The translations under genes and the position numbers were made by a program. The notes beneath the pieces were generated by a model. The model did no database searches, was not told the origin of the DNA, and saw nothing but the letters and a program-made list of their open reading frames with translations. From contig NZ_PVTE01000008.1 of assembly GCF_003002825.1 (NCBI RefSeq), forward strand, positions 124,001-188,000: a stretch of 64,000 nt of DNA, in the 5' to 3' direction. This stretch comes from Spirosoma oryzae (GTDB lineage: Bacteria > Bacteroidota > Bacteroidia > Cytophagales > Spirosomataceae). Below are positions 5,727 to 53,140 of the stretch, one piece after another. Numbering within the stretch: the first letter of the stretch is position 1; each line of letters begins with the position of its first letter.

Positions 5727-5902
5727 CCGGTCAGTAGCAACAGCAGCCGGTTCCCTGACACTGCCCCCCTACAACCTCCCTCACTATGAGTAGTTTACGA
5801 CTGGGCACAAGTAGCATGTCGCTGACTTAGCCCCCAAACTTTTGTGGAAACGGCGAGTTACGTTAGCGAGTATCGACACTGACACTCGTAACAAATCGAC
5901 GT

Positions 5903-6328: not shown

Positions 6329-6355
6329 TTTGTAGTCCAGACCTAAATATCTGGG

Positions 6356-7561: not shown

Positions 7562-7618
7562 AAAGGTAACCGCCGGCTCAGTGGCCCGGCGCAAGTGTAG
7601 GTGAAAAGGAGATTCGTA

Positions 7619-8977: not shown

Positions 8978-9083
8978 AAAAAAGGCGTTGTATTCGGATA
9001 GATTCGTACTACCCAAATACAACGCCCGCCCGTAGCTACTGCTTTCGTGGAAAACTTGTAACCTGAACCGGTCCGCTACACGG

Positions 9084-9187
9084 TGTAGCCCAGACCTCCA
9101 GGTCTGGTAGCCGTCAGGCTAATTTGCGGATGACGGTAACCTTCTTGGCCGCTAGCGCGTCCACCAGACCGGGAGGTCTGGGCTACA
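9084..9187. repeat. 24-bp inverted repeat pair, each arm itself palindromic
   Basis: The arms 9084-9107 and 9164-9187 are reverse complements at 23 of 24 positions. Each arm contains a short internal palindrome (CCAGACCT / AGGTCTGG in the first). The pair lies between the 5' end of the MFS gene and the 3' end of the Old Yellow Enzyme gene. It could be a transcript-end structure or a dispersed intergenic repeat. No T-run follows, so a simple terminator is not obvious. Confidence 0.7.
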
Positions 9188-9253
9188 CATCTGGTATCCG
9201 CCAACGCTGCTACGTAAGGAAAACACGTTTTCTACCGCTACACCGACGACAGC

Positions 9254-10354: not shown

Positions 10355-10479
10355 AATCGTTTGTACGACTACCGCAGTAGAATCGATATGTGCGATAGTA
10401 TTTGATGTACTAACAGGAAAATAGGTGACTTTGTCGCGCTATGGCTGCTGAAATTTAGAAGTACGCCCAGTGCCTGCGC

Positions 10480-13035: not shown

Positions 13036-13037
13036 AG

Positions 13038-13073
13038 AGCGATCGTTATTTCCAGACAAAAATAACGATCGCT
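13038..13073 (-). promoter_or_regulatory. perfect 14+14 bp palindrome before the TonB receptor, candidate ModE-like operator
   Basis: The arms 13038-13051 and 13060-13073 are exact reverse complements (AGCGATCGTTATTT and its complement) around an 8-nt loop. The palindrome ends three bases before the receptor ATG on the minus strand. The inner halves read CGTTATTT...AAATAACG, similar in form to ModE boxes (inverted CGTTATAT-like halves, from memory). Binding at this spot would block transcription or early elongation. As RNA it could instead form a stem that hides the translation start. Confidence 0.6.
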
Positions 13074-13134
13074 ATCTTCTAGAAAACATAACGCTAGTTA
13101 ATGGTCCAGGCTACGCAGCTACGTCCGGGCTACA

Positions 13135-13464
13135 TCACGGCAACTGCGCCATTTCCTGCGTGATGAACTGGCGGAAGCGATCCTGCAGGCCCTGAAAGTA
13201 AGCGATGTATTTCAGGCCTTCTTCCGTAACGACGGCCCCGCCCCCCTTCTCACCGCCCGTCTGCGTAGCGACAAGGGGCGCATCGGCCTGTCCGTTCATC
13301 GACTGTACCAGTTCCCAGGCTCGCTTGTACGACATATTCATGGCTTTGGCTGCCTGGTTGATCGACCCGGTTCGCTGAATGTGTGTCAGCAGTTCGAGCC
13401 GGCCGATGCCGAAAAAACGGTCGCTGCCTTCCAGCCAGATGCGTCCATTTATCTGTATCTGCAT
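13135..13464 (-). CDS. ModE-like N-terminal winged-helix transcriptional regulator
   Basis: This is a DNA-binding protein of 109 residues matching the N-terminal winged-helix domain of ModE, the molybdate-responsive regulator. The start MQIQINGRIWLEGSDRFFG is preferred over a frame extension to 13524. The recognition region is GSINQAAKAMNMSYKRAWEL, followed by VQSMN, and the Gly-rich wing GGEKGGGAVVTEEGL is characteristic. The C-terminal MOP ligand-binding domain is absent, so ligand sensing must be lost, occur differently or depend on a partner. It is followed, 99 bp downstream on the same strand, by the TonB receptor, whose start is overlain by a palindrome. That makes local control likely. 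Confidence 0.88.
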   Translation of the reverse strand: MQIQINGRIWLEGSDRFFGIGRLELLTHIQRTGSINQAAKAMNMSYKRAWELVQSMNGQADAPLVATQTGGEKGGGAVVTEEGLKYIAYFQGLQDRFRQFITQEMAQLP

Positions 13465-13492
13465 GTCTCGTATCGTTTTCGTACTGTACCGG

Positions 13493-13500
13493 CAAAGGTA
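13493..13500 (-). promoter_or_regulatory. TACCTTTG -7 element for the ModE-like gene
   Basis: On the minus strand this reads TACCTTTG, matching the Bacteroidota -7 consensus TAnnTTTG, 28 bases upstream of the regulator ATG. I found no clear TTG -33 element at the usual spacing. Confidence 0.45.
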
Positions 13501-13619
13501 CGTGCTTGTGATATACAGCGTCATGATCAGTACGACCGCATAGGCTGGCAGGTTTTTCGCTAGTAAATCCCACTAAATAAGCAATACGCCGGTAATACCA
13601 GTCACGCCTAACATTTGCC

Positions 13620-13627
13620 TATATTTG
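13620..13627 (+). promoter_or_regulatory. TATATTTG -7 element upstream of the GT2 gene
   Basis: This octamer matches TAnnTTTG and lies about 120 bases before the glycosyltransferase ATG, in the divergent space shared with the ModE-like gene. A -33 TTG at ideal spacing is not visible. Confidence 0.35.
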
Positions 13628-13746
13628 CCCTTGTTTTACGCTTTGTAAGTCAAGTACCCTACGTGTGTTGTGGCCCAGCGCCCAACCGGCATATAGGTGG
13701 ACTGGCAAACGGCCCACCCACTCATTGAATCACACAAATACGCTGC

Positions 13747-14508
13747 ATGAGCCTCCTGCTGTCAATTGTAATGCCAGCTTACAACGAAGAAGAAGTTATC
13801 GAAGTCGTTGTCAAGCAATGGACAGATTTGTTAGCCCGCCAATTTCCAGCCGACGATACTCGCCTGATCGTCGTTAACGACGGCTCCCGCGACAAGACCG
13901 GCGCTATTCTCGACGCCATCAAACCCCGTTATCCCAAACTGATGGTCGTTCACCAGCCTAACGGTGGCCACGGTAATGCCGTTGTCAATGGGTATCGGCA
14001 GGCGGTAGCGCTCGATTCGCAGTACGTGTTTCAGACCGATAGCGACGATCAGTTTATTGCTGAAGACTTCGCCAAGCTCTGGAACCTACGCGATACGTCG
14101 CCCTTCATTCTGGGGTACCGTGAAGAGCGGTACGACGCCCCTGCCCGGCTGGTCATCACCCGTATTCTGCGGTTCAGCATTGCCGCCATCTACGGCACGT
14201 ACATCATGGACAGCAACATTCCCTTCCGACTGATTCGGGGTTCGTTCCTGAAGAAGCTGCTGGCCCAGCTGCCCACCCCAACCCCGTTTGCACCCAATAT
14301 TTTTCTGGCGGTCATGGCCAAGAAAGCCGGTTTCAACACCTTCGATATCCCCATCACCCACAAGGAACGTCAGACCGGTACCGTCTCCATCCTGAAATGG
14401 AAGCTGCTGAAAGTCTGTTTCCAAAGTTTTCGGGAACTCGCCCAGTTCCGCTTTGACCTGGGCAGCAAGGTGAAAGCCCTGCGCAAACCCGAACCCGTTG
14501 CCGCCTAA
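13747..14508 (+). CDS. glycosyltransferase family 2 (dolichyl-phosphate-mannose-synthase-like)
   Basis: This is a cytoplasmic GT-A fold enzyme that moves a sugar from a nucleotide donor, probably to a lipid carrier. Its 253 residues cover one GT2 domain without C-terminal membrane helices. The opening LLSIVMPAYNEEEVIEVVVK and VVNDGSRDKTG are the donor-binding motifs, and QTDSDDQF carries the DxD metal site. The segment GYREERYDAPARLVITRIL resembles DPM1-type enzymes acting on polyprenyl phosphate. The FAD-dependent gene starts 63 bp downstream on the same strand, so the two likely form a unit. Donor and acceptor are not known. Confidence 0.88.
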   Translation: MSLLLSIVMPAYNEEEVIEVVVKQWTDLLARQFPADDTRLIVVNDGSRDKTGAILDAIKPRYPKLMVVHQPNGGHGNAVVNGYRQAVALDSQYVFQTDSDDQFIAEDFAKLWNLRDTSPFILGYREERYDAPARLVITRILRFSIAAIYGTYIMDSNIPFRLIRGSFLKKLLAQLPTPTPFAPNIFLAVMAKKAGFNTFDIPITHKERQTGTVSILKWKLLKVCFQSFRELAQFRFDLGSKVKALRKPEPVAA

Positions 14509-14571
14509 ACACCTGGCTTCTACAGCCAATTCAATCACTAATCCAAGAAAAGACAATCAACGTTTTCCTTC

Positions 14572-15963
14572 ATGAAGTACAAGTATGTTATCATTGGCTC
14601 CGGCCCAACGGGGCTGGGTGCAGCGCACCGCCTGAAAGAACTTGGCATCACGGATTTTATCGTGCTGGAAAAGGAAAATCGCATCGGTGGGTTGTCGAAA
14701 AGTTTCGTTGACGAAAAAGGGTTTACCTGGGACGTAGGCGGCCACGTTCAGTTTTCCCACTACAAGTACTTCGATGACCTGATGGTAGCCGCCCTCGGCG
14801 AAGACGGCTGGTACAGTCATCAGCGTGAATCATGGGTCTGGATCGAAAACCGGTTTGTGCCGTATCCGTTCCAGAACAACATCAAGTACCTCACGCCCGA
14901 AACGATGTGGAAATGCCTTGAAGGCATTATTCACAACTACAAGCACCCGACGACGGTGAAACCCGCCAACTTCCGCGAATGGATTCTGGCGACGTTCGGA
15001 CCGGGCCTGGCCGAGACGTTCATGTTCCCGTATAACTTTAAGGTGTGGGCTTACCCTACCGAGGAGATGAACGCAGCCTGGGTTGGTGAGCGCGTTGCCG
15101 TAACGGACCTGAGCCGGGTGACGAAAAACATCATTTTCAACAACGACGATTTTTCGTGGGGTCCCAACAGCACGTTCAAATTCCCCAAGCATGGCGGAAC
15201 GGGTGGTATCTGGGAAGCCGTGGGTAACCTGGTTGGTCGCGAGTACATCAAACTCAACGCTACCGTCGAGAAAGTAATCGGTCCCGAAAAGAAAATCATC
15301 CTCGCCGGTGGCGAAGAAATCGAGTACGAACACCTGATGAGCACGGTACCGCTCGATTTGTTTGTGCAGAAAGTGGAAGGGCTGGACGCCGATACCGTTC
15401 AGCGAGCACAGGGGCTGAAGCACTCGTCGACAAACGTGGTCGGTATCGGTCTGAAAGGCAAGCCGAAGCCAAGCCTGGAAACGATGTGCTGGATGTACTT
15501 CCCGGAATACAACAGCCCGTACTACCGCGTGACGGTGTTCTCGAACTACAGCCCGCACAACGTACCGGACATCAACCAAAACTGGTCACTGATGACCGAA
15601 ACGAGCGAATCGTCGGCGAAACCCGTCAACCGCGAAACCCTGATCGCCGACACGATCCGGGCGCTGATTGAAGATCAGCTGATCGAATCGGCGGACGATG
15701 TCGTATCGACTTTCCACATGGCCTTCGATTACGGGTATCCAACGCCTTCGGTTGAGCGCGACGGTATCCTGAAAGACGTACTGCCGAAACTGGAGCCGTT
15801 CGGCATCTACTCACGTGGTCGCTTCGGTGCCTGGAAATACGAGGTTAGCAACCAGGATCACTCGCTGATGCAGGGTGTTGAATGGGCCAACCGCGTGGCA
15901 GCCGGCGTTCCCGAACTGACCCTCCCCTTCCCCGACACCGCCAACGCGATGTGGGGTAAGTAA
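14572..15963 (+). CDS. FAD-dependent amine-oxidase/protoporphyrinogen-oxidase-like protein
   Basis: This is a flavoprotein of 463 residues with an N-terminal Rossmann dinucleotide site (YVIIGSGPTGLGAAHRLKEL) and the next conserved element EKENRIGGLSKSF. DVGGHVQFSHY is the substrate-side motif seen in UDP-galactopyranose-mutase-like and PPOX-like proteins. The C-terminus GRFGAWKYEVSNQDHSLMQG is the FAD-closing region of the NAD(P)-binding PPOX-like family. It follows the GT2 gene closely, so a role in modifying a nucleotide- or lipid-linked sugar is more likely than haem synthesis. No other haem genes are nearby. The reaction is not established. Confidence 0.82.
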   Translation: MKYKYVIIGSGPTGLGAAHRLKELGITDFIVLEKENRIGGLSKSFVDEKGFTWDVGGHVQFSHYKYFDDLMVAALGEDGWYSHQRESWVWIENRFVPYPFQNNIKYLTPETMWKCLEGIIHNYKHPTTVKPANFREWILATFGPGLAETFMFPYNFKVWAYPTEEMNAAWVGERVAVTDLSRVTKNIIFNNDDFSWGPNSTFKFPKHGGTGGIWEAVGNLVGREYIKLNATVEKVIGPEKKIILAGGEEIEYEHLMSTVPLDLFVQKVEGLDADTVQRAQGLKHSSTNVVGIGLKGKPKPSLETMCWMYFPEYNSPYYRVTVFSNYSPHNVPDINQNWSLMTETSESSAKPVNRETLIADTIRALIEDQLIESADDVVSTFHMAFDYGYPTPSVERDGILKDVLPKLEPFGIYSRGRFGAWKYEVSNQDHSLMQGVEWANRVAAGVPELTLPFPDTANAMWGK

Positions 15964-41126: not shown

Positions 41127-43511
41127 ATGCTCAAACGAACGCCTTTTCTTTTCTTCCTGCTATGGCTGGTAGCTGGCGGTGCGTCGGCACAGCTGTCGCC
41201 CCCAATCGTACCCGACCGGCTGACATTCGCCGACATTTCGGTACGACTTGACGACAATGCCCGGCGTATCGTGCAACAGGATGTCAACGCGCTGTTGGCC
41301 AATCGGCAGTACTGGACGGCCAAACTCGACCGGGTGGTACTGTATTTCCCCGTCATCGAAGCCATTCTGATTCAGGAAGGCGTGCCGACCGATTTTAAAT
41401 ACTTAGCCGTTCAGGAAAGCTCGCTGACGCCCGACGCGGTGTCGTCGTCGGCGGCAGTGGGGTACTGGCAGTTCAAGCGGGAGACCGCTACCGGCCTGGG
41501 TATGCGGGTCGATGATGGTATCGACGAGCGGAAAAGCATCACGGCATCGACACACGGCGCTGCGCAGTACATGAAACGCAGCAATGCGCAGTTCAACAAC
41601 TGGGTCGCATCCCTATACTCCTACTACTTGGGGGCGGGCGGCATTGCCAAGCTGATTCCGCCCGACTGGGCCTACGCCCGCGAGATTGCCCTCGACGGCC
41701 GCACCGATCGCTACATCCTGCGCTTCTTTGCCCACAAACTGGCGATTGAAAACGCGCTGAAATCGCACCAGACCAGCAACCGGTTTGCGCTGCTCGAATA
41801 CCCCGGTGGCAGCAACAAAACCTTCCCCGAAATTGCCGGCGAGCTGAGCGTCGACGAGTTCGAGCTGCGGAAATATAACCGCTGGTTGATTAACGATACC
41901 GTACCGACCGATAAGACGTACGTTATGATCGTACCGGTACCAACCGATCAGATCAACGATGTACGGCAGAAAATTGTCAGCGTTGGATCACGTAAAGCCG
42001 CCGATGCCGGGCAGGCCGACGTTGGCTTTCCTGTCCTGCGTCGGGTAACAGCGGGTCTGGGTGGGAAGGATGATCCGGCACTCTACGAAATCAACGGGCT
42101 GCCCGGTATTCAGGCGCAGGCGGGCGACAATGCCGCTACGCTGGCCCGGACGTCTAAAATCAGCCTGTCGAGTTTCCTCCGCTATAATGACCTGGACGAA
42201 TCCGACCCGATTATCGTTGGCGACGTGTATTACCTGGCCAAAAAGCGCAAGAAAGCGCTGGTTCCTTTCCATACGGTACGGGTTGGTGAGACGGCCCGCA
42301 GCATTTCGCAACGGTACGGACTGCGCCTGAAACGGTTGCTGCGCTACAACCGCGTCGACCGGACTCAGAAACTGACGACGGGCCGGGTCATGTGGCTGCG
42401 GGAGCGCCGGCCGGCCAGCAAACCCGTCGAAATCATCAACGGACCGACGCCACCCGTCTACGATCAGACACCGACGCCACCGACCCGCACCGACGTGGCG
42501 GATGGATCACAGCCAACCCGCACGGTCGCTGGCGCCAATGACATTCCCCGCACCATGGCAGACCGGAAGAAATACCAGCCTAAACTGGTTGGTGGGGGTG
42601 TAACACCGAACGACGGTACCGCTCAACCGGCTGCCCCACAACCCGCTACCGACGTTCAGTCGCTGGGTGGCGATGGCTGGTCGACGGGCAACAACGGTAG
42701 CGGCATGAACAAGGCCAAGAAAACGCCCCGCACGACCACCAGCAGCCCAACGGTAAGTCAGCCCGCCAATGCCGACGGTAGCCAGCGCATCGTGATCGTT
42801 CGTTCCCCAACGGGCGACGCCGGTCAGACCGAAACCCGCGCCGTACCCGTCGCGACAACACCCGAACGCGCACAGCCTGCCAACGCCCCCGCTGCCGATC
42901 CACAGCCAGCCAGCAAGCCCGTTGCGTCGTCGGAAACATACGCACCAAGCCGTCCCAGCAAACCAGCGCCGGTTCGCGACGACGACCTGCAACCAACCGA
43001 ACCCCGCACCGTACCAACCCCGACAACGCGCTCCACTACGCCCAAAGCGGAACCCCGGCCGGCCGAACCGGTAGCCGCGAAGCCAGTTGCCGCCGAGCCA
43101 GCACCGATCAGCCGTCCGACTGCGCCTGTCGATCGTACGGCCACAACGCACACGGTCGAAGCAGGACAAACATATTACAGCGTTGCCAGGATGTACGGTC
43201 TGACAGTCGACGAACTGCTGACACTAAACAACCTGACGGCCAGCGAGCCACTGGCGACAGGCAAAAAACTGATGGTAAAGCCAACGGCTAGTGGTAGCAC
43301 TACCGCAACGACCAAAGCACAGCCGACGACGAAACCTACAGCCAGCGGTTCAACAGCCAAAGCCGTATACCACACCGTTGGTAAGGGCGAAACGATGTAC
43401 CGGATTTCGAAAGAGTACGGTGTTACGGTTCAGCAGATTCAGGAATGGAATAAGCTGACGGACACGAACGTCAAGGAAGGTCAGAAGCTAAAAATCGAGA
43501 AATCGGAATAG
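41127..43511 (+). CDS. LysM-containing lytic transglycosylase (MltD-like)
   Basis: This is a periplasmic peptidoglycan-cleaving enzyme. It has a signal peptide (TPFLFFLLWLVAGGASAQ). An SLT domain follows at about residues 70-220, with the catalytic Glu in YLAVQESSLTPDAVSSSAAV and the GYWQFKRETA and AAQYMKRSNAQFNNW motifs. Three LysM domains are visible: HTVRVGETARSISQRYGL (about residue 383), HTVEAGQTYYSVARMYGL (about 675) and HTVGKGETMYRISKEYGV (about 752). A Pro/Thr/Ala-rich linker of about 250 residues separates the first from the last two. The length, 794, is due to that linker. A strong terminator follows. Confidence 0.93.
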   Translation: MLKRTPFLFFLLWLVAGGASAQLSPPIVPDRLTFADISVRLDDNARRIVQQDVNALLANRQYWTAKLDRVVLYFPVIEAILIQEGVPTDFKYLAVQESSLTPDAVSSSAAVGYWQFKRETATGLGMRVDDGIDERKSITASTHGAAQYMKRSNAQFNNWVASLYSYYLGAGGIAKLIPPDWAYAREIALDGRTDRYILRFFAHKLAIENALKSHQTSNRFALLEYPGGSNKTFPEIAGELSVDEFELRKYNRWLINDTVPTDKTYVMIVPVPTDQINDVRQKIVSVGSRKAADAGQADVGFPVLRRVTAGLGGKDDPALYEINGLPGIQAQAGDNAATLARTSKISLSSFLRYNDLDESDPIIVGDVYYLAKKRKKALVPFHTVRVGETARSISQRYGLRLKRLLRYNRVDRTQKLTTGRVMWLRERRPASKPVEIINGPTPPVYDQTPTPPTRTDVADGSQPTRTVAGANDIPRTMADRKKYQPKLVGGGVTPNDGTAQPAAPQPATDVQSLGGDGWSTGNNGSGMNKAKKTPRTTTSSPTVSQPANADGSQRIVIVRSPTGDAGQTETRAVPVATTPERAQPANAPAADPQPASKPVASSETYAPSRPSKPAPVRDDDLQPTEPRTVPTPTTRSTTPKAEPRPAEPVAAKPVAAEPAPISRPTAPVDRTATTHTVEAGQTYYSVARMYGLTVDELLTLNNLTASEPLATGKKLMVKPTASGSTTATTKAQPTTKPTASGSTAKAVYHTVGKGETMYRISKEYGVTVQQIQEWNKLTDTNVKEGQKLKIEKSE

Positions 43512-44037: not shown

Positions 44038-44421
44038 ATGAAAGAAAACCTGACGAACACACGCATCCTGCTTGTCGACGACAACCCGCTCAATTTACTC
44101 CTGATCCGTAAACTGATTATAAAATGGGGAGGCCAGGTCGATACTGCCGACAATGGCGAAAAAGCCGTTGAATTGAGCCGAATCAGCGCAGCCAATCAGC
44201 TTCCGTATCAGGCGATCATCATGGATTTACAGATGCCGGTCATGGACGGTGCAACGGCCTGCCAGCTTATCCGCCAGTTCGACCCGACCGTCGCCATTCT
44301 GGCATCGTCGGCAACTGCGCTGCCGCAGGAAGAACTCGACGCCAGTGGCTTCACGGGTTCAGTGGTCAAGCCGTTCGAGTCGGCGCAGCTACACAACCAG
44401 CTTCTCTCACTCCTATCCTAG
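44038..44421 (+). CDS. stand-alone response regulator receiver
   Basis: The 127 residues are a single receiver domain without an output domain. The acidic pair is in ILLVDDNPLNLLLI, the phospho-acceptor Asp is in IIMDLQMPVMDG (residue 63), and the Ser/Thr switch and Lys are in ILASSATALP and SVVKPFES (Lys 111). With a histidine kinase starting three bases downstream, it is probably phosphorylated by that kinase and acts by protein contact. The gene opens the exopolysaccharide-like operon, so it may regulate synthesis after translation. Confidence 0.93.
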   Translation: MKENLTNTRILLVDDNPLNLLLIRKLIIKWGGQVDTADNGEKAVELSRISAANQLPYQAIIMDLQMPVMDGATACQLIRQFDPTVAILASSATALPQEELDASGFTGSVVKPFESAQLHNQLLSLLS

Positions 44422-44424
44422 CTT

Positions 44425-45798
44425 ATGAATGCCGTAGCGTCATCTGTCAGACCACCGGTTATTTCGTCCGCTGAACTAAGTCGGGAGGTCAGCCATCAGG
44501 CGTCCTACGGTACAACGACGATCGTATGGGTGTTTCTGTCGGTCTACCCGTTCTTCTCTATTTTCGATTATGTTTTTGCCGAGACGCTGTGGCAGCCCTT
44601 TTTGCTGATCCGTCTTATAATAGTCCTGCTGGTGTACATGACGTACCGCGTGGGGCGGGCGTATAACTGGTCGTACCGATGGCCCCTGCACCTGATTCTG
44701 GCCAGTGTATCACTGACGTACGCGCTGCTTTGTAACCTGGTCGATTTCGGCGCGATCAGCACTTATTTCCTGACACTATCGGCCATTTTTCTGCTTATCA
44801 ATGCCACCGTGTACTGGAAGGCGTTCAACTCGTATCTGCACGCAGCCTTCGCCATTGTCGTCCAGTTACTCTGCTTTTATCTGGTGAATCAGCGCTACCC
44901 GATCCTGACGTTTTTTCAGGAAGGCGGCATCGTATTTATGGTTATCGCGATCTGTTCGGCTTACATTCCACGGGCACGCTTTCTATCGCTCGGACGGGAA
45001 ATCCGGCTACAACTGACCGCCCAGCATACCAACGACAAACTACAGGATCTCAACGAGGAACTGATTGGCAAAAACCAATTGATCCTGGATAAAAACGCGC
45101 AGCTCAAACGGCTCAACGATCAGAAAAACGACTTTATCTCCATTGCCGGTCACGACCTGAAAAACCTGGTCGGCACGATTCGCCTGTCGGTGGGTGAACT
45201 ACAGGCCGAAGGCGCTGCGATGAGTCCGGATCAGCAGGAGTATATCGGCTTTATTTCGGATGCGTCGGGGCGTATTCAGTACCTGCTCAACAAGCTGCTC
45301 GACGTCAAAGAAATCGAAGGCACCGAAATCGCCTTTACCTACGAACAGGTCGATCTGAACCGAATCATCAACCGCATTGCCAACGACCTGACAGATGCGG
45401 CCACTCGAAAAGATATTCAGCTGCTGCTGAACATGCTGCCCACCAGCATCATCGTGCAGGTCGATCAGGTATTTGCCCGGCAGATTTTCGAGAACCTGAT
45501 TGCCAATGCCATTCGGTTCTCGCAGCCCGCCAATACGCTTACGCTGCATACCGATGCCACCGACACCCGCTTCGTCTTTGAGTTGATCGACCAGGGACAG
45601 ACCATCGGACAGGCGCAGATGGATCGGTTATTCAACAAGCTCGATGAGTTATCGCACACGACCGTCAGTTCACCCGACCGCGCCGGTCTGGGTCTGTCGA
45701 TTGCCCTCCGACTGACGGAAGCCATGCACGGAACACTGACCTACGCCAGCAATCCACGCATCGGCAACCGCTACCGGGTCGAGTTTCCATTGGCCTAG
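44425..45798 (+). CDS. membrane sensor histidine kinase
   Basis: The 457-residue kinase has about six hydrophobic segments in the first 200 residues, then a coiled coil, then the dimerisation box FISIAGHDLKNLVGTIRLS (His residue 243). The ATPase domain follows, with the N-box in IFENLIANAIRFS, the G1-like ELIDQGQTIGQ and the G2-like RAGLGLSIALRLTEAM. The membrane-embedded sensor region has no extracytoplasmic loop of size, so it may sense membrane or intramembrane cues. It lies between the receiver and the BcsB-like gene, 47 bp from the latter. Confidence 0.92.
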   Translation: MNAVASSVRPPVISSAELSREVSHQASYGTTTIVWVFLSVYPFFSIFDYVFAETLWQPFLLIRLIIVLLVYMTYRVGRAYNWSYRWPLHLILASVSLTYALLCNLVDFGAISTYFLTLSAIFLLINATVYWKAFNSYLHAAFAIVVQLLCFYLVNQRYPILTFFQEGGIVFMVIAICSAYIPRARFLSLGREIRLQLTAQHTNDKLQDLNEELIGKNQLILDKNAQLKRLNDQKNDFISIAGHDLKNLVGTIRLSVGELQAEGAAMSPDQQEYIGFISDASGRIQYLLNKLLDVKEIEGTEIAFTYEQVDLNRIINRIANDLTDAATRKDIQLLLNMLPTSIIVQVDQVFARQIFENLIANAIRFSQPANTLTLHTDATDTRFVFELIDQGQTIGQAQMDRLFNKLDELSHTTVSSPDRAGLGLSIALRLTEAMHGTLTYASNPRIGNRYRVEFPLA

Positions 45799-45845
45799 CC
45801 ATCAGCCCATACGCTCCTGCTTATTCAACTAGTTACCCCTTACCT

Positions 45846-47969
45846 ATGTCGCTCGTTACTCCTTCCTGGCACCGAATCTGGCTATTCCCCCTGCTGGGTG
45901 CTATACTGCAACCGGCCATCGGCAAGCCCGTACCCGCCCGCCGACCCGTTCAACTGATTCGTTCGAACTGGACAATAGCCAAACCGGCCAATCTAACGGC
46001 GGTGGCAGCACGCCCGACGCCCGCACCGGCCGTTTCACCCGCGCGGGTGACGTTTGCCGAAGCCGGCTACGCCGATCAGTCGTTGCAGGGGTTGAGCAGT
46101 ACGGCTACCTACTATCTGCGGATTCCACCCACGGGCACGCTGCAAAACGGACAGCTCACGCTGCTCCTGACGCCGTCGCAGGCGCTGCTGCTCAACAAAT
46201 CGTCGGTTACGATACAGGTGAATGGTCAGCCGGCACTCAGCCTGAACCTGAATCAGTTGACACCCAATAGCCCGATCTCCGTACCGCTGTCGTCCGCCAG
46301 TCAGCAGGCGGGTTCTCCGTTCGTGCAGGTCGACGTAAAGACGCAACTGGCCATCAGCGATGATCGCTGCAAAGACCTCGAAAATCCGGCGTTATGGCTC
46401 AAGGTCGGGCAAGCGTCGTCGGTTACCTACCAGGTCGCAGCCAACGCGGGTAAGCGCCTGAACCTGTCGAACTGCCTGCCGACCAAAACGGCCATCGTTT
46501 ATCCGGCCACGGCCAGCCCTGTCGACATTCGGCTGGTCAGTGCCTTATACAGCCGCCTGAGTGAGCTACGGCCCGGCACCGTCGGTCTGTTTCCGGCCAG
46601 CCAGGCCCCCGACTCCCTGCGCAACCTGATCGTCGTCGGTGAACTGACCAACTTACCCGCCCGCTACCGTTCCCTGTTGACCCGGCAACCGCAACCCCAC
46701 CAGGGTTTGTTTGTCCTGAAAGCCGCTACGCCCCAGCAGCCGGAAGTGCTGTTTGTGACGGGCAGCGGACAGGACGGCTACGCCAAAACGGTCGACGCCG
46801 TGAGCAACTCGACTATTCTGGCGTCGGCATTCGGTGACTTCCTGACAATCAACGAAGCCCGGCAGGAACAACTGGATCGTCCGCAGTCGGACCGGCTGAC
46901 GCTGGCGCAGCTGGGTGGGCAACCGACGATGATGCAGGGAATCGGCTCGCTGCGGCAGTTATACAGCTTCCGGCTCAGCGACTTCAGTAAACAGCCCAAT
47001 GAAATCGAAACGCACCTTGAAGCCCGCTACAGCGGTTTACAGGCCGGCGACCGGGGTTACCTGAATCTGTACATCAACGACGTACTGTTCAGCAGTACCG
47101 CCCTCGACAAATCAGGGCTGATTTCGGTGTCGCCGAACGTAAAACGATACCTGCTCAAGCCGTTCAACACGGTGCAGGCGGAGTTTCGCTTCTTCCCCGG
47201 CACGAATGTTTGCCAGAACAGCTTCACCAGCTTCTTCGCCCAGGTCGACGTGCAGCGGTCGTATGTCTACAGTGCCTCGGCGTACTCGTCCGAAACGCTT
47301 AGCTTCCTGCAATATCCCGGCGCGTTCCAGAGCAAACCGCTGGCGGTCGTCGTGAGCAAATCACAGCTGACACAGGCGGTTCCGGGCGTCTGCGAACTGG
47401 TACGGCAACTGAACCAGCGCCCGGCGAAGACGCTCACGATTCCATCGGTCTACGCATCGGACAGCTACAAAGCCTCGACCGACGAAAACCTGCTCGCCAT
47501 TCTCGACCGCAATGATCCGCTATGGGCTCGGCTGTCGAAAGCCCCGGTGCAGTTCGACCGCGATTTCCGGCTGTACGGCGACGACCGCAGTAAGCCGCTC
47601 TTTGCCGTTTCCGACTCGGTCTCGTGTGGCGTAGCCCAGATTTTCCGGGAAGGCGATCAGTCGGTACTGCTGCTGTCGCTGAACGGAACCGCAGCCGCCG
47701 GAACGCTGCAAAACACCGCCCGCCACCTGACCGATCAGTTGTCGAATCAGGCCAGTAACGTACTGATTGCCGCCGGCCCGAACCGGTACGTCTTCAACCT
47801 GACCGAAGATAATGCCAGCATCGACTACTACGACCGGACCGACTACGCCCGCGACTGGTGGGGTCGGTACAACCTCTACATCCTCGGTGGCCTGCTGGTG
47901 CTGATTCTGCTGGCTTTCCTGTATGTGCGCTCGAAAGTAAACGTATCACGGGCCCTTTTCGAGAACTAA
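45846..47969 (+). CDS. BcsB-like periplasmic polysaccharide-synthase partner
   Basis: BcsB-type proteins guide a nascent glucan through the periplasm and are anchored next to the synthase. The 707-residue protein has an N-terminal signal (IWLFPLLGAILQPAIGKP) and a single C-terminal helix (YNLYILGGLLVLILLAFLYV). The family marker DDRCKDLENPALWLKVGQAS matches the BcsB CBD-like region. Further BcsB-like elements are TATYYLRIPPTGTLQNGQ and YLNLYINDVLFSSTALDKSG. It is two bases upstream of the outer-membrane barrel gene and in the same operon as a GT2. The sugar polymer is not known and need not be cellulose. Confidence 0.82.
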   Translation: MSLVTPSWHRIWLFPLLGAILQPAIGKPVPARRPVQLIRSNWTIAKPANLTAVAARPTPAPAVSPARVTFAEAGYADQSLQGLSSTATYYLRIPPTGTLQNGQLTLLLTPSQALLLNKSSVTIQVNGQPALSLNLNQLTPNSPISVPLSSASQQAGSPFVQVDVKTQLAISDDRCKDLENPALWLKVGQASSVTYQVAANAGKRLNLSNCLPTKTAIVYPATASPVDIRLVSALYSRLSELRPGTVGLFPASQAPDSLRNLIVVGELTNLPARYRSLLTRQPQPHQGLFVLKAATPQQPEVLFVTGSGQDGYAKTVDAVSNSTILASAFGDFLTINEARQEQLDRPQSDRLTLAQLGGQPTMMQGIGSLRQLYSFRLSDFSKQPNEIETHLEARYSGLQAGDRGYLNLYINDVLFSSTALDKSGLISVSPNVKRYLLKPFNTVQAEFRFFPGTNVCQNSFTSFFAQVDVQRSYVYSASAYSSETLSFLQYPGAFQSKPLAVVVSKSQLTQAVPGVCELVRQLNQRPAKTLTIPSVYASDSYKASTDENLLAILDRNDPLWARLSKAPVQFDRDFRLYGDDRSKPLFAVSDSVSCGVAQIFREGDQSVLLLSLNGTAAAGTLQNTARHLTDQLSNQASNVLIAAGPNRYVFNLTEDNASIDYYDRTDYARDWWGRYNLYILGGLLVLILLAFLYVRSKVNVSRALFEN

Positions 47970-47971
47970 CC

Positions 47972-48841
47972 ATGCGTCATCTGCTCAGTTTGCTACTGCT
48001 GGTCAGCAGCGTCGCGGGATATGCCGGGCCACGGTCGGCCGGGCCACGATCGGCCGGGCCGCGCTCGGCATGGCCGCAACAGAAACACCGGTTTATGTTC
48101 GTGCCGGGCGTCTACTACTACCGGGCGACGAGCTACTGGGGGCCCGACCGCGCGGTGCAAGCCTTCGGCGACAATGGTCGATTTCAGTCGGTCAACGTCC
48201 GGTTGTATGGGGAGTATGGCCTGTCGGATCGGCTGACGCTGGTGGGTACGTTGCCCTTCGCCACGAATCAGTACAAAAGCGAGCAACAGACCATCCATAA
48301 CAGCGGCCTGACGGACCTCGAAGTCGGGCTGCGGTATAACCTGCTCAATGTCGATAACCGGCGCTATCTGTCGGTGCAGGCGCAGGCGATTGCCCCGTTG
48401 TACCAGAATGCCAGCCGGATACCGTATCTGGGCTACGCGAGTAGCGGGGCCGAGCTGAAACTGCTGTACGCGGGTAGTCTGAAGCTGAACAACCGGGACG
48501 CGTATTTCAACACCGAAGCCGGGTTTCGACGCTTTTTCCGTGTTGGTCCCCGCCCGGTCGATCAGGTATCGCTGCTGGCGACGATGGGCTGGTACGTGTC
48601 TCCCAAGAACGTGCTGATCGGCGAACTGAGCGGACTGATTTCGTACAGCAGTCTGTTCCGCGAACTCAACCCGGTCAACCCGACGGTCAACACGGATTTT
48701 CGCTTTGCCAAAGCGACGCTGGGCTATGGTCGTCAACTCGGCACGGGCACCTGGTTGTATGCCAATGCGTATGGCGATGTCTACGGGCAGAACGTGGGCA
48801 TCGGACGCGGCTTCTCACTCACTTCCGTTATCCGCTTCTAA
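47972..48841 (+). CDS. outer-membrane beta-barrel protein of the exopolysaccharide operon
   Basis: I place the start at ATG 47972, giving 289 residues; the open frame extends upstream into the BcsB-like gene. A signal peptide (LLSLLLLVSSVAGYAGP) is followed by a low-complexity GPRSAGPRSAGPRSA stretch and then alternating strand pattern (FMFVPGVYYYRA, NVRLYGEYGLSDRLTLVGTL). It ends SLTSVIRF, with the C-terminal Phe usual for barrels. It may act as the outer-membrane export pore, in place of the large BcsC TPR protein, which is absent. That role is inferred from position. Confidence 0.72.
   Translation: MRHLLSLLLLVSSVAGYAGPRSAGPRSAGPRSAWPQQKHRFMFVPGVYYYRATSYWGPDRAVQAFGDNGRFQSVNVRLYGEYGLSDRLTLVGTLPFATNQYKSEQQTIHNSGLTDLEVGLRYNLLNVDNRRYLSVQAQAIAPLYQNASRIPYLGYASSGAELKLLYAGSLKLNNRDAYFNTEAGFRRFFRVGPRPVDQVSLLATMGWYVSPKNVLIGELSGLISYSSLFRELNPVNPTVNTDFRFAKATLGYGRQLGTGTWLYANAYGDVYGQNVGIGRGFSLTSVIRF
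48026..48070 (+). repeat. three 15-bp tandem repeats in the barrel gene
   Basis: The units GGGCCACGGTCGGCC, GGGCCACGATCGGCC and GGGCCGCGCTCGGCA encode GPRSA repeats just after the signal peptide. Unit gain or loss would keep the reading frame, as 15 is a multiple of three. Confidence 0.85.
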
Positions 48842-48844
48842 GGC

Positions 48845-50704
48845 ATGCAGGCAACCCGCACAACGCCATACACCAGTATCGACTGGCTGTTTACGGCCGG
48901 ACTGCTGAAGCAGGAACAGGTGTTCAGACTCCGTCGGTTTCAATGCGAAACCGGCTTCGCGCCGGTCAAGATTCTGCTCAACTTCGGCTACCTCTCGCGC
49001 AAGCAGTACGAACGCGTGCTGGCGACGAACGGCCACACGCTGGTAGCGATTCGGGAGGAAGCCTATACCATGGACGTGGTCAGTCAGCTCGATCTGCGCG
49101 TGGCCGACCGCTTTCTGGGCATGCCGCTGCGCATCGAAAACGGGCACGTCGTGGTGGCGATGGCCGACCCAACCGACGAAACGTACATCGCGCTCGTTCG
49201 CGATACATTCAACCTGCCGCTAACCATTCTGCCCGCGTCGGACCTCGACATTATCTGGCTGAGCCATAAGTTGCTGGGCGAACCGTACGTCAAGAAAGCC
49301 GTCTTCGACCTGGTGCAGCGCGACCCGGAAAGCTCGGCGCTGGTAACGTTTACCAACAGTCAGTTGGTCGTCATTTTCAGCCTGATCGCCGTCGTCGTCA
49401 CCCTGCTCTGCCTGAATTTCGTCGATACGTCAATCACGATCAACGTGCTGATGAGTACGTTCTTTCTGATTTCGATCGGCTTCAAGCTGTTTCTGGCCCT
49501 GGTCGGTTCGCGGTTCGAGTTGTTTCAGGCCGTTACGAAAGAGGAAGTCGCGCAGGTACGCAACGAGGACTTACCGGTCTACACCATTCAGTTGCCGGTT
49601 TACAAGGAAGACAAGCTGATTCGGAAACTGATCTGGAACCTGCAGAACCTCGACTATCCCAGTGAAAAACTGGACATCAAACTGCTAATCGAGGAAGACG
49701 ATGACAAGACGCTCAATGCCGTCCGGGCACTTGATTTTCCGGCCAATTTCGAGGTAATCGTGGTTCCCTTCCACATGCCGAAGACCAAGCCCAAAGCCTG
49801 TAACTACGGCCTGCATTTTTCGCGCGGGGAGTTCCTGACCATCTACGACGCCGAAGATATACCCGACGCCGATCAGCTTAAAAAGACGGTCTTTCTGTTC
49901 AACAAGCTGCCCAAGAAGTTTATCTGCCTGCAAGGGGCACTGAACTACTTCAACCGCAACGAGAACATGCTCACACGGATGTTCACGCTCGAATACAGCT
50001 ACTGGTTCGACTACATGCTGCCGGGCCTGGGAACGCTCGACATTCCCATTCCGCTGGGTGGTACGAGCAATCATTTCAAGCTCGATATCCTGCGCGAACT
50101 GGGCGGCTGGGACCCGTTCAACGTTACTGAAGATGCCGATCTGGGCGTGCGCGCCTTTGCCAAAGGCTATAAGGTGGCCATCGTCAACTCGACCACTTAC
50201 GAGGAAGCCAATAACGAACCGTTCAACTGGATTCGGCAGCGGTCGCGGTGGATCAAAGGGTACATGCAGACGTACCTCGTTCACATGCGCAACCCGCGTC
50301 GACTGGTGCAGAAGATCGGCTGGAAAGGCTTTATCGGCTTTAACTTCTTTATCGGCGCGACGTCGATGACCTTTCTGCTGTACCCGATCCTACTGGCCTT
50401 TTTTCTGGCTTACCTCGTGTTCGATCTGAAAGCCATCCGCCCGCTTTTCCCCGACTGGGTGCTGTACATCTCGACCTTCAACCTGATCGCGGGGAATATG
50501 CTGATGATTTATATCAACATGCTGGCCGTGTTCAAGCGCCGGTTCTACGAACTAATCTGGTTTGCCCTGCTCAATCCGGTATACTGGCTCATGCACTCGA
50601 TTGCGGCTTATAAAGGACTCTGGCAGTTGATTACCAAACCGTTCTACTGGGAAAAAACCAACCACGGCCTGAGCAAAACCAACGCCGTAACCGCCAAATC
50701 ATGA
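48845..50704 (+). CDS. GT2 polysaccharide synthase with N-terminal MshEN-like domain
   Basis: This 619-residue protein is the likely synthase. Residues 1-150 resemble the MshEN/GspE N-terminal domain, with a helical repeat (WLFTAGLLKQEQVFRLRRFQ, then ILLNFGYLSRKQYERVLATN) and VVVAMADPTDETYIALVRD. In MshEN proteins this domain binds c-di-GMP, but the RLG residues at the motif starts are not kept here. Two membrane helices follow. The GT2 core has YTIQLPVYKEDKLIRKLIW, LLIEEDDDKT, TIYDAEDIPDAD, VTEDADLG and IRQRSRWIKGY, the processive QxxRW type. Four C-terminal helices complete it. It is three bases after the barrel gene and overlaps the next by four bases. Confidence 0.9.
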   Translation: MQATRTTPYTSIDWLFTAGLLKQEQVFRLRRFQCETGFAPVKILLNFGYLSRKQYERVLATNGHTLVAIREEAYTMDVVSQLDLRVADRFLGMPLRIENGHVVVAMADPTDETYIALVRDTFNLPLTILPASDLDIIWLSHKLLGEPYVKKAVFDLVQRDPESSALVTFTNSQLVVIFSLIAVVVTLLCLNFVDTSITINVLMSTFFLISIGFKLFLALVGSRFELFQAVTKEEVAQVRNEDLPVYTIQLPVYKEDKLIRKLIWNLQNLDYPSEKLDIKLLIEEDDDKTLNAVRALDFPANFEVIVVPFHMPKTKPKACNYGLHFSRGEFLTIYDAEDIPDADQLKKTVFLFNKLPKKFICLQGALNYFNRNENMLTRMFTLEYSYWFDYMLPGLGTLDIPIPLGGTSNHFKLDILRELGGWDPFNVTEDADLGVRAFAKGYKVAIVNSTTYEEANNEPFNWIRQRSRWIKGYMQTYLVHMRNPRRLVQKIGWKGFIGFNFFIGATSMTFLLYPILLAFFLAYLVFDLKAIRPLFPDWVLYISTFNLIAGNMLMIYINMLAVFKRRFYELIWFALLNPVYWLMHSIAAYKGLWQLITKPFYWEKTNHGLSKTNAVTAKS

Positions 50705-52296
50705 CCGCGTACTCCCAGCGTCCGCTGCTCGGGGCAACCCTGCTGCTCGCGGCCTATTACGTCTTACTGGCACTCAATGGGCAACGGCTGGGCTTTCACA
50801 CGCCCGAAGCCTTGTTTCTGAGCGAAAAGTCGCTGATTATCTGGCAGGGTGTGGGCGACAAGGTAGCCGTGCTGGGGCTTACGTTTCCGGTCGTTCCGTT
50901 TTTTGTCAGCCTGCCGTTCTGTGCGTTGTTTCCGCTGGCGGGGCCGGTCATCGCGTCGTCGCTGGGGATGGCGCTGCTCTTCTTTCTGATTCTCGACGAT
51001 CAGCGACGGCTGACCATGCCCCTACTGGTTCAGGTCGGTACGGCGCTGTCGTTTGTGGCGCATCCGGGGCTACTGTTTTCAGCAACGTCGGGGCAGGGTA
51101 CCTATACCGTACTGCTGTTCGGCTACCTGTTTTTTCGCAGCCTGCTGACGTACTACCAGTCGAACACAACCTATCACGTATCGATGGCCAGCCTGTTTCT
51201 ATTGGGACTGGTATTCAGCGAAGTCGACTTCAGCTGGCTGTGTCTGTTTCTGCTGCCGCTCGTGCTGTTCATTTCGTTGCAAAGCCTGTCGCTGCGGGGT
51301 GAAGACACCTTATCGCGGCTGGGACTGGCGTTCAACAACGTCTCGCTTCGCCGTAAGCTGATCAACAAATCGCTGGCGCTGGTCATTCTGTTGTTTATGC
51401 TGCCGCTGGCCAGCCTGTTCATTTTCAGTCTGCTCAACAGCGTGTATGCCGGCGATCCGCAGTACTTTCTCGATAACCCGTATGCCAATGCCAGTGTCGT
51501 AACGAGTCAACTATTTCGCCAGCAATTTGCCAACTATACCGCCGATCTCGTACAAACGGATACGTCGGTGCTTATCTCGATCCGACGGCTGCTCTATGCC
51601 CCGTTGATCCTACTAAGTCTGCTCAGCGTTCGCGGACGCTCTTACCAGTTACTGACCCTGCTTAGCCCACTGTTGCTGGTGGAGTTTCTGCACGTGAAAG
51701 ACCCGTCGGTACCGACGCAGATTGAATTTTACCAGATTTTTCTGGTGCTCGGCTGGGCGGGCCTGACCGTTATTCCGGTGCCCCGGCTACGGGCGGTGAA
51801 CGGATTGGCCTTTACACTGCTACTCGTTCAGATCGGCGTCAGTGGCTTTCGACTGCTCAATTCGTCATACCCCATCGAACGCTCCTTCCTGCGCGACGTG
51901 CTGGTGCTAAACCCCAGCCGACAACCGGAAGCGCCTGACGACGACAAACTCGTTCAGTTTGTCCGGCAACTGCCAGAAACCACCCGCATCCTGACCGACG
52001 ACGCGACGGCCTATTCGTTCATTGCCCGCACCGAACGGGTTCGTCCGTTTCTGCTTGCCTATCAGCAGAGCTACCTGTCGGCCTACGACAATCCGGCGCC
52101 TTTCGTCCAATACATTCTGGCCCACAACACGGCCAACGATCCGCAAGCCCAGTTTTCCATGACCAACACCCGGTACGTCGATGCCATTCAGCGCCGGACG
52201 GGCCGACGTCTGTCACTGGTCATGAAAAGCACCGACTGGTCGATCTACGCGCTCACGCCCAACCGCACGGCAGCCGCTTCGCTAGCGGCCAAATAA
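50701..52296 (+). CDS. polytopic membrane protein, GT-C-like
   Basis: I do not recognise a named family. The 531-residue protein has about ten hydrophobic segments in its first 390 residues (for example VPFFVSLPFCALFPLAGPVI and LALVILLFMLPLASLFIFSL), followed by a soluble domain of about 130 residues (RILTDDATAYSFIARTERV). This architecture resembles GT-C glycosyltransferases, though no catalytic Asp motif is certain. Its ATG overlaps the stop of the GT2 gene by four bases, so it is translationally coupled and probably part of the same machine. It is the last gene in the operon. Confidence 0.78.
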   Translation: MTAYSQRPLLGATLLLAAYYVLLALNGQRLGFHTPEALFLSEKSLIIWQGVGDKVAVLGLTFPVVPFFVSLPFCALFPLAGPVIASSLGMALLFFLILDDQRRLTMPLLVQVGTALSFVAHPGLLFSATSGQGTYTVLLFGYLFFRSLLTYYQSNTTYHVSMASLFLLGLVFSEVDFSWLCLFLLPLVLFISLQSLSLRGEDTLSRLGLAFNNVSLRRKLINKSLALVILLFMLPLASLFIFSLLNSVYAGDPQYFLDNPYANASVVTSQLFRQQFANYTADLVQTDTSVLISIRRLLYAPLILLSLLSVRGRSYQLLTLLSPLLLVEFLHVKDPSVPTQIEFYQIFLVLGWAGLTVIPVPRLRAVNGLAFTLLLVQIGVSGFRLLNSSYPIERSFLRDVLVLNPSRQPEAPDDDKLVQFVRQLPETTRILTDDATAYSFIARTERVRPFLLAYQQSYLSAYDNPAPFVQYILAHNTANDPQAQFSMTNTRYVDAIQRRTGRRLSLVMKSTDWSIYALTPNRTAAASLAAK

Positions 52297-52310: not shown

Positions 52311-53105
52311 TCAGCCAATCCAGAAGTCTTCGCTGTCGAGCAGTTGCTCGTACCGTTCCCTGTTGAAGCGATACAGATACGGTGCTTTGCTGGACGGAAT
52401 CGTCGGGCGTTTGTCGAGCCGGTCCAGCACGTTGTAGTTCATCAGCTGCTTGTAGAAGTTGCGTCGGTCCAGACTACGCCCCAGAATGGTTTCGTACAGG
52501 CGTTGCAGTTCCGACATGGTAAACGAGTCGGGCAGCAGGTTATAGCCGATTGGCTGATAGCTCAGTTGCCGACGCAGGGTTTTGAGCGCCATCCGAATCA
52601 TGGCGTTATGATCGAACAATAACTGGGGCACCTGATCGATGTCCCACCAGCGGCACTCGTCGGTCAGCAGGTCGGGCGTCGGGCTAACCTGCGTGTAGTC
52701 GACCAGCGCGTAGAAGCCGACCGACACGTCGCGGTGGTTTTTCAGGGCGCTGTCGCCCTCCAGCAGTCGAGCCGCCATCTCCTTCATTCCCAGCCGGGAC
52801 AGGGTTTCGTGCCAGGAAAAATAAGTCAGCCGGTTCAGGTTGCCGAAGGTGTGAAACTGCTGTAGAAACAGGCGGTCCAGTCCCGTCCGCTCCCGCAGCG
52901 ACCGATAGGCCGCATCGTCCAGATTCTCCCGGTTTCCCACGCGCCCGCCCGGCAGCAGCCAGTCTTCCGACTCCTTGAAGCGCAGCAGCAATACCTTTAG
53001 CTGCCCTTCGTGAAAGCCAAAAATCACCAGATCGAGCGACACCGACGGCAGAAAGTTAACCAGATGATCATCGACCCACCGTTGTACTACTTCACTGAAA
53101 TTCAT
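52311..53105 (-). CDS. Nudix-domain transcriptional regulator (NrtR/AraR-like) with degenerate Nudix box
   Basis: The protein combines an N-terminal Nudix fold with a C-terminal winged helix (SELQRLYETILGRSLDRRNF), as in NrtR-type sugar or NAD regulators. The Nudix box should be G-x5-E-x7-R-E-U-x-E-E-x-G-U. Here GRVGNRENLDDAAYRSLRER keeps the first Gly and Glu but has Ser and Arg in place of two catalytic Glu residues, so it should bind a ligand rather than hydrolyse it. I choose ATG 53105 (MNFSEVVQRW); an ATG at 53129 would overlap the first candidate operator. It faces the PQQ-type dehydrogenase gene, a likely target. Confidence 0.88.
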   Translation of the reverse strand: MNFSEVVQRWVDDHLVNFLPSVSLDLVIFGFHEGQLKVLLLRFKESEDWLLPGGRVGNRENLDDAAYRSLRERTGLDRLFLQQFHTFGNLNRLTYFSWHETLSRLGMKEMAARLLEGDSALKNHRDVSVGFYALVDYTQVSPTPDLLTDECRWWDIDQVPQLLFDHNAMIRMALKTLRRQLSYQPIGYNLLPDSFTMSELQRLYETILGRSLDRRNFYKQLMNYNVLDRLDKRPTIPSSKAPYLYRFNRERYEQLLDSEDFWIG

Positions 53106-53119
53106 AACAAAAAATAGTT

Positions 53120-53140
53120 TGTGCGTCATTAATACACACA
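53120..53140. promoter_or_regulatory. candidate operator 1 in the Nudix regulator / dehydrogenase intergenic region
   Basis: The 21-bp imperfect palindrome TGTGCGTCATTAATACACACA pairs at 7 of 10 positions. It shares the half-site TGTGCGT with operator 2, whose centre lies about 34 bp away. A dyad of this kind suits a Nudix/winged-helix regulator. Confidence 0.5.

What the first reader, a model, noticed from the sequence alone, without database searches (positions are those of the whole stretch)
44038..52296. Six-gene exopolysaccharide operon with a BcsB-like protein, MshEN-GT2 fusion and its own two-component pair
The genes are spaced by 2 to 47 bp or overlap. They encode a receiver, a membrane kinase, a BcsB-like periplasmic protein, a small barrel, a processive GT2 with a QRSRW motif and a polytopic protein. 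Typical cellulose operons have PilZ-BcsA, BcsC and BcsZ, none of which is seen. The GT2 instead carries an MshEN-like domain at its N-terminus, and a 289-residue barrel could replace BcsC. This composition suggests a distinct synthase-dependent secretion system.
Basis: partly seen in the sequence, partly recalled or inferred. Interest (0 to 1): 0.78.

Follow-up and report, generated by a model that had tools for sequence, protein, structure and literature searches.

The report
Exopolysaccharide operon with decayed c-di-GMP domain
Six neighbouring genes look like a machine that makes a sugar polymer, decorates it and passes it out of the cell; the enzyme's old chemical on-switch looks decayed, a linked sensor kinase may have taken over, and the likely exit pore is unusually small.

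Summary
The six genes are tightly packed and co-directional. The order RR-HK-BcsB-barrel-GT2-polytopic recurs in one distant genome (L097), and HK-BcsB-GT2-polytopic in nearly all of 80 related loci, mostly Mucilaginibacter. The module is patchy in the window's family (BcsB in 4 of 200 genomes).

Added here: (1) the polytopic protein is predicted to have a GT-C glycosyltransferase fold; (2) the barrel is predicted to be a 12-stranded, TPR-less COG4313/FapF-like channel, and in two genome samples strong matches occur only where the synthase occurs, even when not in the operon; (3) the MshEN domain has lost its c-di-GMP motifs (0 of 84 homologues) and 0 of 14 carrier genomes have a GGDEF protein, while two of three more distant plasmid relatives keep the motif; (4) the kinase, mostly with its sensor region, travels with the synthase.

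Best reading: a synthase-dependent exopolysaccharide system with periplasmic GT-C decoration and a small exporter, switched by two-component signalling instead of c-di-GMP. The BcsB + N-terminal MshEN-GT2 core is already in print (sfz/xag clusters), so this is a new variant of a known kind. Product, export route, decoration and kinase control are inferred, not shown.

The parts
44038..44421 (+). stand-alone receiver (response regulator, 127 aa), no output domain
   Evidence: PF00072 E 6e-19; receivers also lie beside the synthase genes in L097, L098 (opposite strand) and L099 by BLAST, and in L100 by inspection; not found in the Mucilaginibacter operons
44425..45798 (+). membrane sensor histidine kinase (457 aa): about 6 hydrophobic segments, then HisKA + HATPase_c
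   Evidence: crude hydrophobicity; N-terminal region alone matches the kinases of L007, L017, L101, L098 and L097 (E 9e-80 to 4e-19) but not that of L100, which matches only in the catalytic part; next to BcsB in 79 of 80 loci
45846..47969 (+). BcsB-like periplasmic co-polymerase (707 aa) with C-terminal membrane anchor
   Evidence: PF03170 76.5 bits, cut-off 21; single match in the genome; C-terminal hydrophobic segment
47972..48841 (+). predicted 12-stranded outer-membrane channel (289 aa), candidate exporter, no TPR
48845..50704 (+). processive GT2 synthase (619 aa) with N-terminal MshEN domain whose c-di-GMP motifs are lost
50701..52296 (+). predicted GT-C-fold membrane glycosyltransferase (531 aa), putative periplasmic decorating enzyme

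Best explanation
The operon encodes one synthase-dependent exopolysaccharide machine. The GT2 polymerises a beta-linked hexan (most likely a beta-1,4-glucan, glucomannan or mannan) at the inner membrane and threads it to the BcsB-like protein in the periplasm. The GT-C enzyme adds side sugars there from a lipid-phosphate donor. The 12-stranded barrel, a TPR-less small channel, takes the place of BcsC and lets the chain out. The MshEN domain is a relic that no longer binds c-di-GMP; no GGDEF protein was found in the carriers. Control has passed to the linked membrane kinase and, where present, its stand-alone receiver. Shown by computation: gene unit, domains, predicted folds, motif loss, absence of GGDEF matches, co-occurrence. 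Inferred: polymer identity, order of steps, export through the barrel, side-chain addition, and that the kinase controls the synthase.
For: Gene unit: the six-gene order recurs in L097, and HK-BcsB-barrel-GT2-GTC in L098. Of 80 loci with flanks, HK lies beside BcsB in 79 and GT2 is present in 79; the misses, L018 and L084, are cut contigs. Synthase: GT2 motifs 84 of 84; PDB profile hits to BcsA, E 4e-14. Barrel: at E <= 1e-20 in exactly the 4 of 200 family genomes (own genome included) that have BcsB; in the phylum sample 9 of 395 genomes, all within the 11 of 395 with the GT2. In the six carriers of genera g57 and g66 it lies outside the operon, beside acyltransferase and acetyl-esterase genes in the four opened. 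GT-C; the gene in the same position on the Geobacillus plasmid is annotated glycosyltransferase family 39 and matches my polytopic profile at E 7e-10. c-di-GMP loss: 0 of 84 match the published relaxed motif and none has Gly at position 3 of either repeat. Positive controls: NfrB (2 motif hits), Geobacillus GT2 (1) and UR115 GT2 (2), and NF053729 at 66.4, 65.7 and 47.0 bits against cut-off 38. GGDEF 0 of 14 carrier genomes. Polymer: a GH5 cellulase cluster lies divergently next to the kinase gene in 59 of 80 loci (one member Pfam-tested); GH113 beside the UR115 cluster; a ManC-like gene in Geobacillus.
Against: No experiment. The window operon has no glycoside hydrolase; its genome has two GH5 matches, both on other contigs and only one over the cut-off. 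In Mucilaginibacter the receiver and the barrel are not in the operon. L099 has no kinase at the locus, and the L100 kinase matches only in its catalytic part. No barrel was detected in G379 and only a weaker one in G272 (E 5.5e-13). The barrel threshold was my choice; weaker matches (E 1e-5 to 5e-4) exist elsewhere in six carriers, the window's genome among them, and only 6-12 candidates per genome were scored. The acidic residue of the first GT-C loop is invariant in A3 but Ser in L101. PMT/PMT_2 matches of positional equivalents are all below the cut-off, and L097 and UR115 have none. 4 of 16 A2 members show a weak NF053729 match (best E 0.0025). Of three plasmid relatives opened, the Methylobacterium one also lacks the motif, so loss is not unique to Bacteroidota. 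Only 2 of the 203 GGDEF-positive phylum genomes are from the window's class, so absence there says little. GH5, GH113 and ManC point to different sugars.
Confidence: 0.6

Rival explanations
1. An ordinary c-di-GMP-controlled cellulose (bcs) operon in a divergent form.
For: PF03170 passes; GT2 aligns with BcsA structures; a GH5 endoglucanase-like neighbour in Mucilaginibacter.
Against: CelA model 71 bits against cut-off 699; best BcsB equivalog 35 against 750; no PilZ hit; MshEN motif lost; no GGDEF match in 14 of 14 carriers; barrel predicted with 12 strands and no TPR.
Confidence: 0.12
2. Same machine, but the kinase and receiver are a neighbouring regulatory unit with no direct tie to the synthase.
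For: No receiver in the operon in Mucilaginibacter; no kinase at the locus in L099; the L100 kinase shares only its catalytic part.
Against: The same kinase, N-terminal region included, sits next to BcsB in Spirosomaceae, Mucilaginibacter, L101, L097 and L098; the UR115 relative also carries a receiver and a kinase beside its GT-C-like gene.
Confidence: 0.12
3. A question within the best reading rather than against it: the product is a mannose polymer (beta-mannan or glucomannan) built from GDP-mannose, not a glucan.
For: ManC-like gene directly upstream of BcsB in the Geobacillus relative (TIGR01479 241 bits, below its cut-off of 373); GH113 (a mannanase family, recalled) beside the UR115 cluster; phosphomannose isomerase next to sfz in Zetaproteobacteria (PMC8250860); acetyl esterase and acyltransferase beside the Mucilaginibacter barrel.
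Against: The Mucilaginibacter GH5 is closest to endoglucanases in the PDB; stalk-forming Betaproteobacteria lack the phosphomannose-isomerase cassette; none of these genes is in the window operon.
Confidence: 0.35
4. The barrel is an accessory porin (for example oligosaccharide uptake or product sampling), and another protein exports the polymer.
Against: Co-occurrence in the samples; position between BcsB and GT2 in L006-L008, L097 and L098; no other outer-membrane candidate among the six genes.
Confidence: 0.2

Closest known systems
xag / xag-like / sfz-sfb gene clusters (Xanthomonas xagABCD; stalk-forming Zeta- and Betaproteobacteria)
   Same: BcsB-like gene (sfz1) and a GT2 with N-terminal T2SS-E-like domain (IPR007831, sfz2) with TED and QxxRW; a third gene of about 500 codons with no known domain (sfz3, 1499-1535 bp), close in size to our GT-C protein; a glycoside hydrolase (sfz4, GH10) (PMC8250860 sections 14, 16, 17 and passages; PMC4643136 passages)
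   Different: No 12-strand barrel, kinase or receiver is mentioned in the parts I read; c-di-GMP control is proposed there, whereas here motif and cyclases are missing. Xag and Sfz sequences were not compared; JGI names three of our listed hits (P0026, P0070, P0090) 'glycosyltransferase XagB' (label only)
NfrB-NfrA-YbcH of E. coli
   Same: GT2 fused to an MshEN domain in an exopolysaccharide operon (PMC8669469, PMC8669472, passages); weak BLAST match GT-NfrB, E 2e-6 in a three-protein database
   Different: MshEN is C-terminal and intact; exporter NfrA is a TPR barrel; no BcsB in the E. coli operon; no GT-C; DgcJ supplies c-di-GMP
Bcs cellulose synthase
   Same: BcsB family; processive GT2 motifs
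   Different: No PilZ, BcsC or BcsZ in the operon; curated CelA and BcsB cut-offs not reached
Cassettes on Geobacillus plasmid CP128455 and Hyphomicrobiales UR115 plasmid CP131057
   Same: Same core order BcsB-GT2-GTC; GT2 46-47% identical. Geobacillus: BcsB by Pfam, GT39 by annotation. UR115: BcsB-like and GT-C-like only by my profiles (E 9e-9 and 3e-5), not by Pfam
   Different: c-di-GMP motif intact; no barrel found by my profile
FapF and COG4313 12-stranded channels
   Different: FapF secretes amyloid protein; sequence identity 13-15%

Membership tests
Bcs cellulose synthase operon | BcsA catalytic subunit with PilZ | tested here: not met
   CelA 71 of 699 bits; no PilZ among Pfam hits at E <= 1
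Bcs cellulose synthase operon | BcsB domain | tested here: met
   PF03170 76.5 bits, cut-off 21; but NCBIfam BcsB equivalogs not reached and no PDB sequence hit with profile A1 at E <= 1
Bcs cellulose synthase operon | BcsC (TPR + large barrel) and BcsZ in the operon | tested here: not met
   No such gene among the six or their two direct neighbours; genome-wide presence not tested
xag/sfz-like cluster | BcsB-like gene plus GT2 with N-terminal MshEN/T2SSE_N and QxxRW, TED | tested here: met
   definition from PMC8250860
xag/sfz-like cluster | third gene XagC/Sfz3 homologue | not testable with these tools
xag/sfz-like cluster | glycoside hydrolase in the cluster | tested here: not met
   None in the window operon; GH5 cluster in 59 of 80 relatives
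MshEN c-di-GMP receptor | two 24-residue RLG...Q motifs | tested here: not met
   window GT has no hit to NF053729 at E <= 1; 0 of 84 match the relaxed motif; no Gly at position 3 of either repeat
MshEN fold (Pfam PF05157) | Pfam cut-off | tested here: met
   35.2 bits, cut-off 23.1; spacing of the two turn glycines 29 as in MshE
NfrBA-YbcH | C-terminal MshEN and TPR-barrel NfrA | tested here: not met
   MshEN is N-terminal; the barrel has no TPR match and its model is barrel only
GT-C glycosyltransferases | GT-C membrane fold | tested here: met
   predicted model
GT-C glycosyltransferases | catalytic acid in first extracytoplasmic loop (recalled) | tested here: inconclusive
   E36 invariant in 42 rows of A3, kept in L097-L099, Ser in L101
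FapF/COG4313 channel | 12-stranded barrel | tested here: met
   predicted model; window protein does not hit PF13557, the L099 barrel does

The most novel reading that the evidence does not exclude
The degenerate MshEN domain has become a phospho-signal docking site. The stand-alone receiver, phosphorylated by the linked membrane kinase, or the kinase itself, binds the synthase and gates polymerisation directly, replacing the second messenger with protein-protein phospho-control; and the polymer leaves through a 12-stranded pore, smaller than in any synthase-dependent exporter I know of (recalled).
Probability: 0.16. Interest if true: 0.82.

Novelty: new variant of a known kind. Interest (0 to 1): 0.62.

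Why it matters
[quoted passage not shown] Here is a lineage in which the enzyme's own receptor domain has visibly decayed, in genomes with no GGDEF match, while a kinase family mostly stays attached. That makes the re-wiring of a biofilm switch testable by genetics. The tie between a 12-strand TPR-less channel and the synthase tests how small an exopolysaccharide exporter can be. The GT-C assignment offers a function for the third gene of the cassette, and perhaps for the unassigned Sfz3/XagC of iron-stalk bacteria. The synthase gene is found in 127 of 149 genomes of genus g57, an unnamed genus that I take to be Mucilaginibacter from sequence similarity; that genus name refers to mucus (recalled).

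Tried and rejected
Canonical cellulose operon: rejected on curated cut-offs and missing parts. c-di-GMP receptor: rejected by motif, curated model and genome content. Recent horizontal gain by composition: GC of the six genes 0.53-0.60 against a window mean of 0.55 (SD 0.024 for 2-kb stretches); BcsB and barrel (0.60) are about two SD high, but so is the upstream gene (0.597), so no clear anomaly. The patchy distribution is unexplained (loss or old transfer). The PDB sequence search with BcsB profile A1 gave nothing at E <= 1, so the BcsB identity rests on Pfam; I ran no further search on it. BcsC does not appear among the barrel's VIA rows, which excludes nothing. The GH5 subfamily was not resolved. 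Literature searches for this operon showed no listing whose title or abstract start describes it in Bacteroidota; one search found no paper, most listed papers were not opened, and subscription papers are not held. I first thought the large minus-strand ORF upstream of the Mucilaginibacter kinase (c6) might be spurious; Pfam showed GH5.

Papers: PMC5013675 part 1 of 7 plus passages; PMC8250860 sections 14, 16, 17 and passages; PMC8669469, PMC8669472, PMC7710045, PMC7112194, PMC4643136 and PMC3609779 abstract or passages only. All other papers: search listing only.
Full report
What is there. Window 44038-52296 holds six co-directional genes with gaps of 2-47 bp and one 4-bp overlap. Pfam gives a receiver, a HisKA/HATPase kinase, a BcsB protein (76.5 bits, cut-off 21), an unassigned 289-aa protein, a GT2 with an N-terminal MshEN match (35.2 bits, cut-off 23.1) and an unassigned polytopic protein. 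By a crude hydrophobicity scan the kinase has about six hydrophobic segments before its catalytic part, and BcsB has one at its C-terminus. PF03170 finds one BcsB in the genome.

Conservation of the unit. A scan of genome contigs with the BcsB profile found 168 relatives, of which the best 80 were kept. Three are Spirosomaceae-type (L006-L008); the rest are named Mucilaginibacter, Sphingobacteriaceae or Bacteroidetes MAGs. The kinase lies beside BcsB in 79 of 80, and GT2 and the polytopic gene are present in 79 of 80; L018 and L084 are cut contigs, and the GT2 is split into two ORFs in L035 and L051. The barrel lies between BcsB and GT2 in 3 of 80, the three Spirosomaceae-type loci; four more loci (L031, L036, L055, L056) have a barrel homologue elsewhere within the flank. 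In samples of whole genomes, own genome included, BcsB is found in 4 of 200 of the window's family and GT2 in 11 of 395 of the phylum at E <= 1e-80. GT2 is in 127 of 149 genomes of g57, which I take to be Mucilaginibacter (at least three of these matches are partial and one has a stop inside). In genomes outside the window's class, L097 has RR-HK-BcsB-barrel-GT2-GTC in the window's order. L098 has HK-BcsB-barrel-GT2-GTC with a receiver just beyond on the other strand. L099 has BcsB-GT2, a 517-aa gene (PMT_2 E 0.002, below cut-off) and a receiver, with a barrel on the other strand and no kinase. L100 has a kinase, a receiver (by inspection), BcsB and GT2. The kinase's N-terminal region alone matches in L007, L017, L101, L098 and L097 (down to E 4e-19), but not in L100.

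The lost switch. The published c-di-GMP motif is two 24-residue repeats RLG...Q (PMC5013675). In 84 GT2 sequences (window, 77 of the 80 loci, L097-L102; L102 and L006 appear to be the same contig, so 83 distinct; L035, L051 and L084 were left out) the relaxed motif occurs in none, and no sequence has Gly at position 3 of either repeat. The turn Gly of repeat II is kept in 84 of 84 and that of repeat I in 74 of 84, at the MshE spacing of 29. The window's domain is closest in the PDB to XpsE (E 2e-4), which PMC5013675 reports to have lost c-di-GMP binding. Controls: NfrB, the Geobacillus GT2 (47% identical) and the UR115 GT2 (46%) keep the motif and pass the curated model NF053729 (66.4, 65.7 and 47.0 bits, cut-off 38). 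The window has no match at E <= 1, nor do L097-L101. Against a clean story: 4 of 16 rows of A2 match weakly (best E 0.0025), and a Methylobacterium relative (34%) also lacks the motif. GGDEF domains: none in the window genome and none in 14 carrier genomes, against 203 of 395 in the phylum sample. Of those 203, 201 are outside the window's class, so absence is informative mainly for the four carriers outside it.

Mechanism. Polymer synthesis by GT2 with BcsB is inferred by analogy with BcsA-BcsB. A cluster of GH5 genes (one member Pfam-tested, closest to endoglucanases) lies divergently next to the kinase gene in 59 of 80 loci. A GH113 gene lies next to the UR115 cluster, and a mannose-1-phosphate guanylyltransferase-like gene, below its curated cut-off, next to the Geobacillus one. 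The sugar is therefore probably glucose or mannose, unresolved. That the kinase now controls output is inferred from gene association only.

Comparison. The BcsB + N-terminal MshEN-GT2 core matches the sfz/sfb stalk clusters and the related xag genes as described (PMC8250860, PMC4643136); I had no Sfz or Xag sequence to compare. NfrB has the same two domains in the opposite order (PMC8669469), and a BcsB homologue clusters with nfrB in Achromobacter (PMC8669472). New here, as far as my searches show: the GT-C fold of the third gene, the barrel, the conserved kinase, and the loss of c-di-GMP sensing. I call it a new variant of a known kind.

Noticed in passing
L137 (CP131057 plasmid) 4858-14714: Hyphomicrobiales plasmid cluster GH113 / BcsB-like (own profile only) / MshEN-GT2 with intact c-di-GMP motif / GT-C-like / receiver / kinase / an ORF overlapping it with a receiver-like stretch: the same kind of cassette in a proteobacterium, with two-component genes beside it.
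   Followed up: partly
L136 (CP128455 plasmid) 3564-10301: A Gram-positive Geobacillus plasmid carries ManC-like / BcsB / GT2 with c-di-GMP motif / GT39 in a row, so the core occurs without an outer membrane.
   Followed up: partly
L126 4880-10334; L128 4120-9561; L127 1322-7217; L129 3568-7339: Second locus in Mucilaginibacter-like genomes and G349: acyltransferase, AXE1 acetyl esterase and the barrel, with a TPR protein next to it in L126 (L128 by inspection); L127 has two barrel and two esterase genes.
   Followed up: partly
L100 3331-6320: Two adjacent PMT/PMT_2-like (GT-C) genes on opposite strands next to the GT2-BcsB pair, both below the Pfam cut-off.
   Followed up: no
L035 4086-5930 and L051 11114-12957: The GT2 is split into two ORFs in these two loci; frameshift or assembly error.
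   Followed up: no
PMC8250860, sfz3: The unassigned Sfz3 (about 500 codons) has the length and cluster membership of our GT-C gene; it may be a GT-C enzyme.
   Followed up: no
window 41127-43511 and 52311-53129: Flanking genes: an SLT lytic transglycosylase with LysM repeats upstream, and an NrtR-like NUDIX regulator on the other strand downstream.
   Followed up: no
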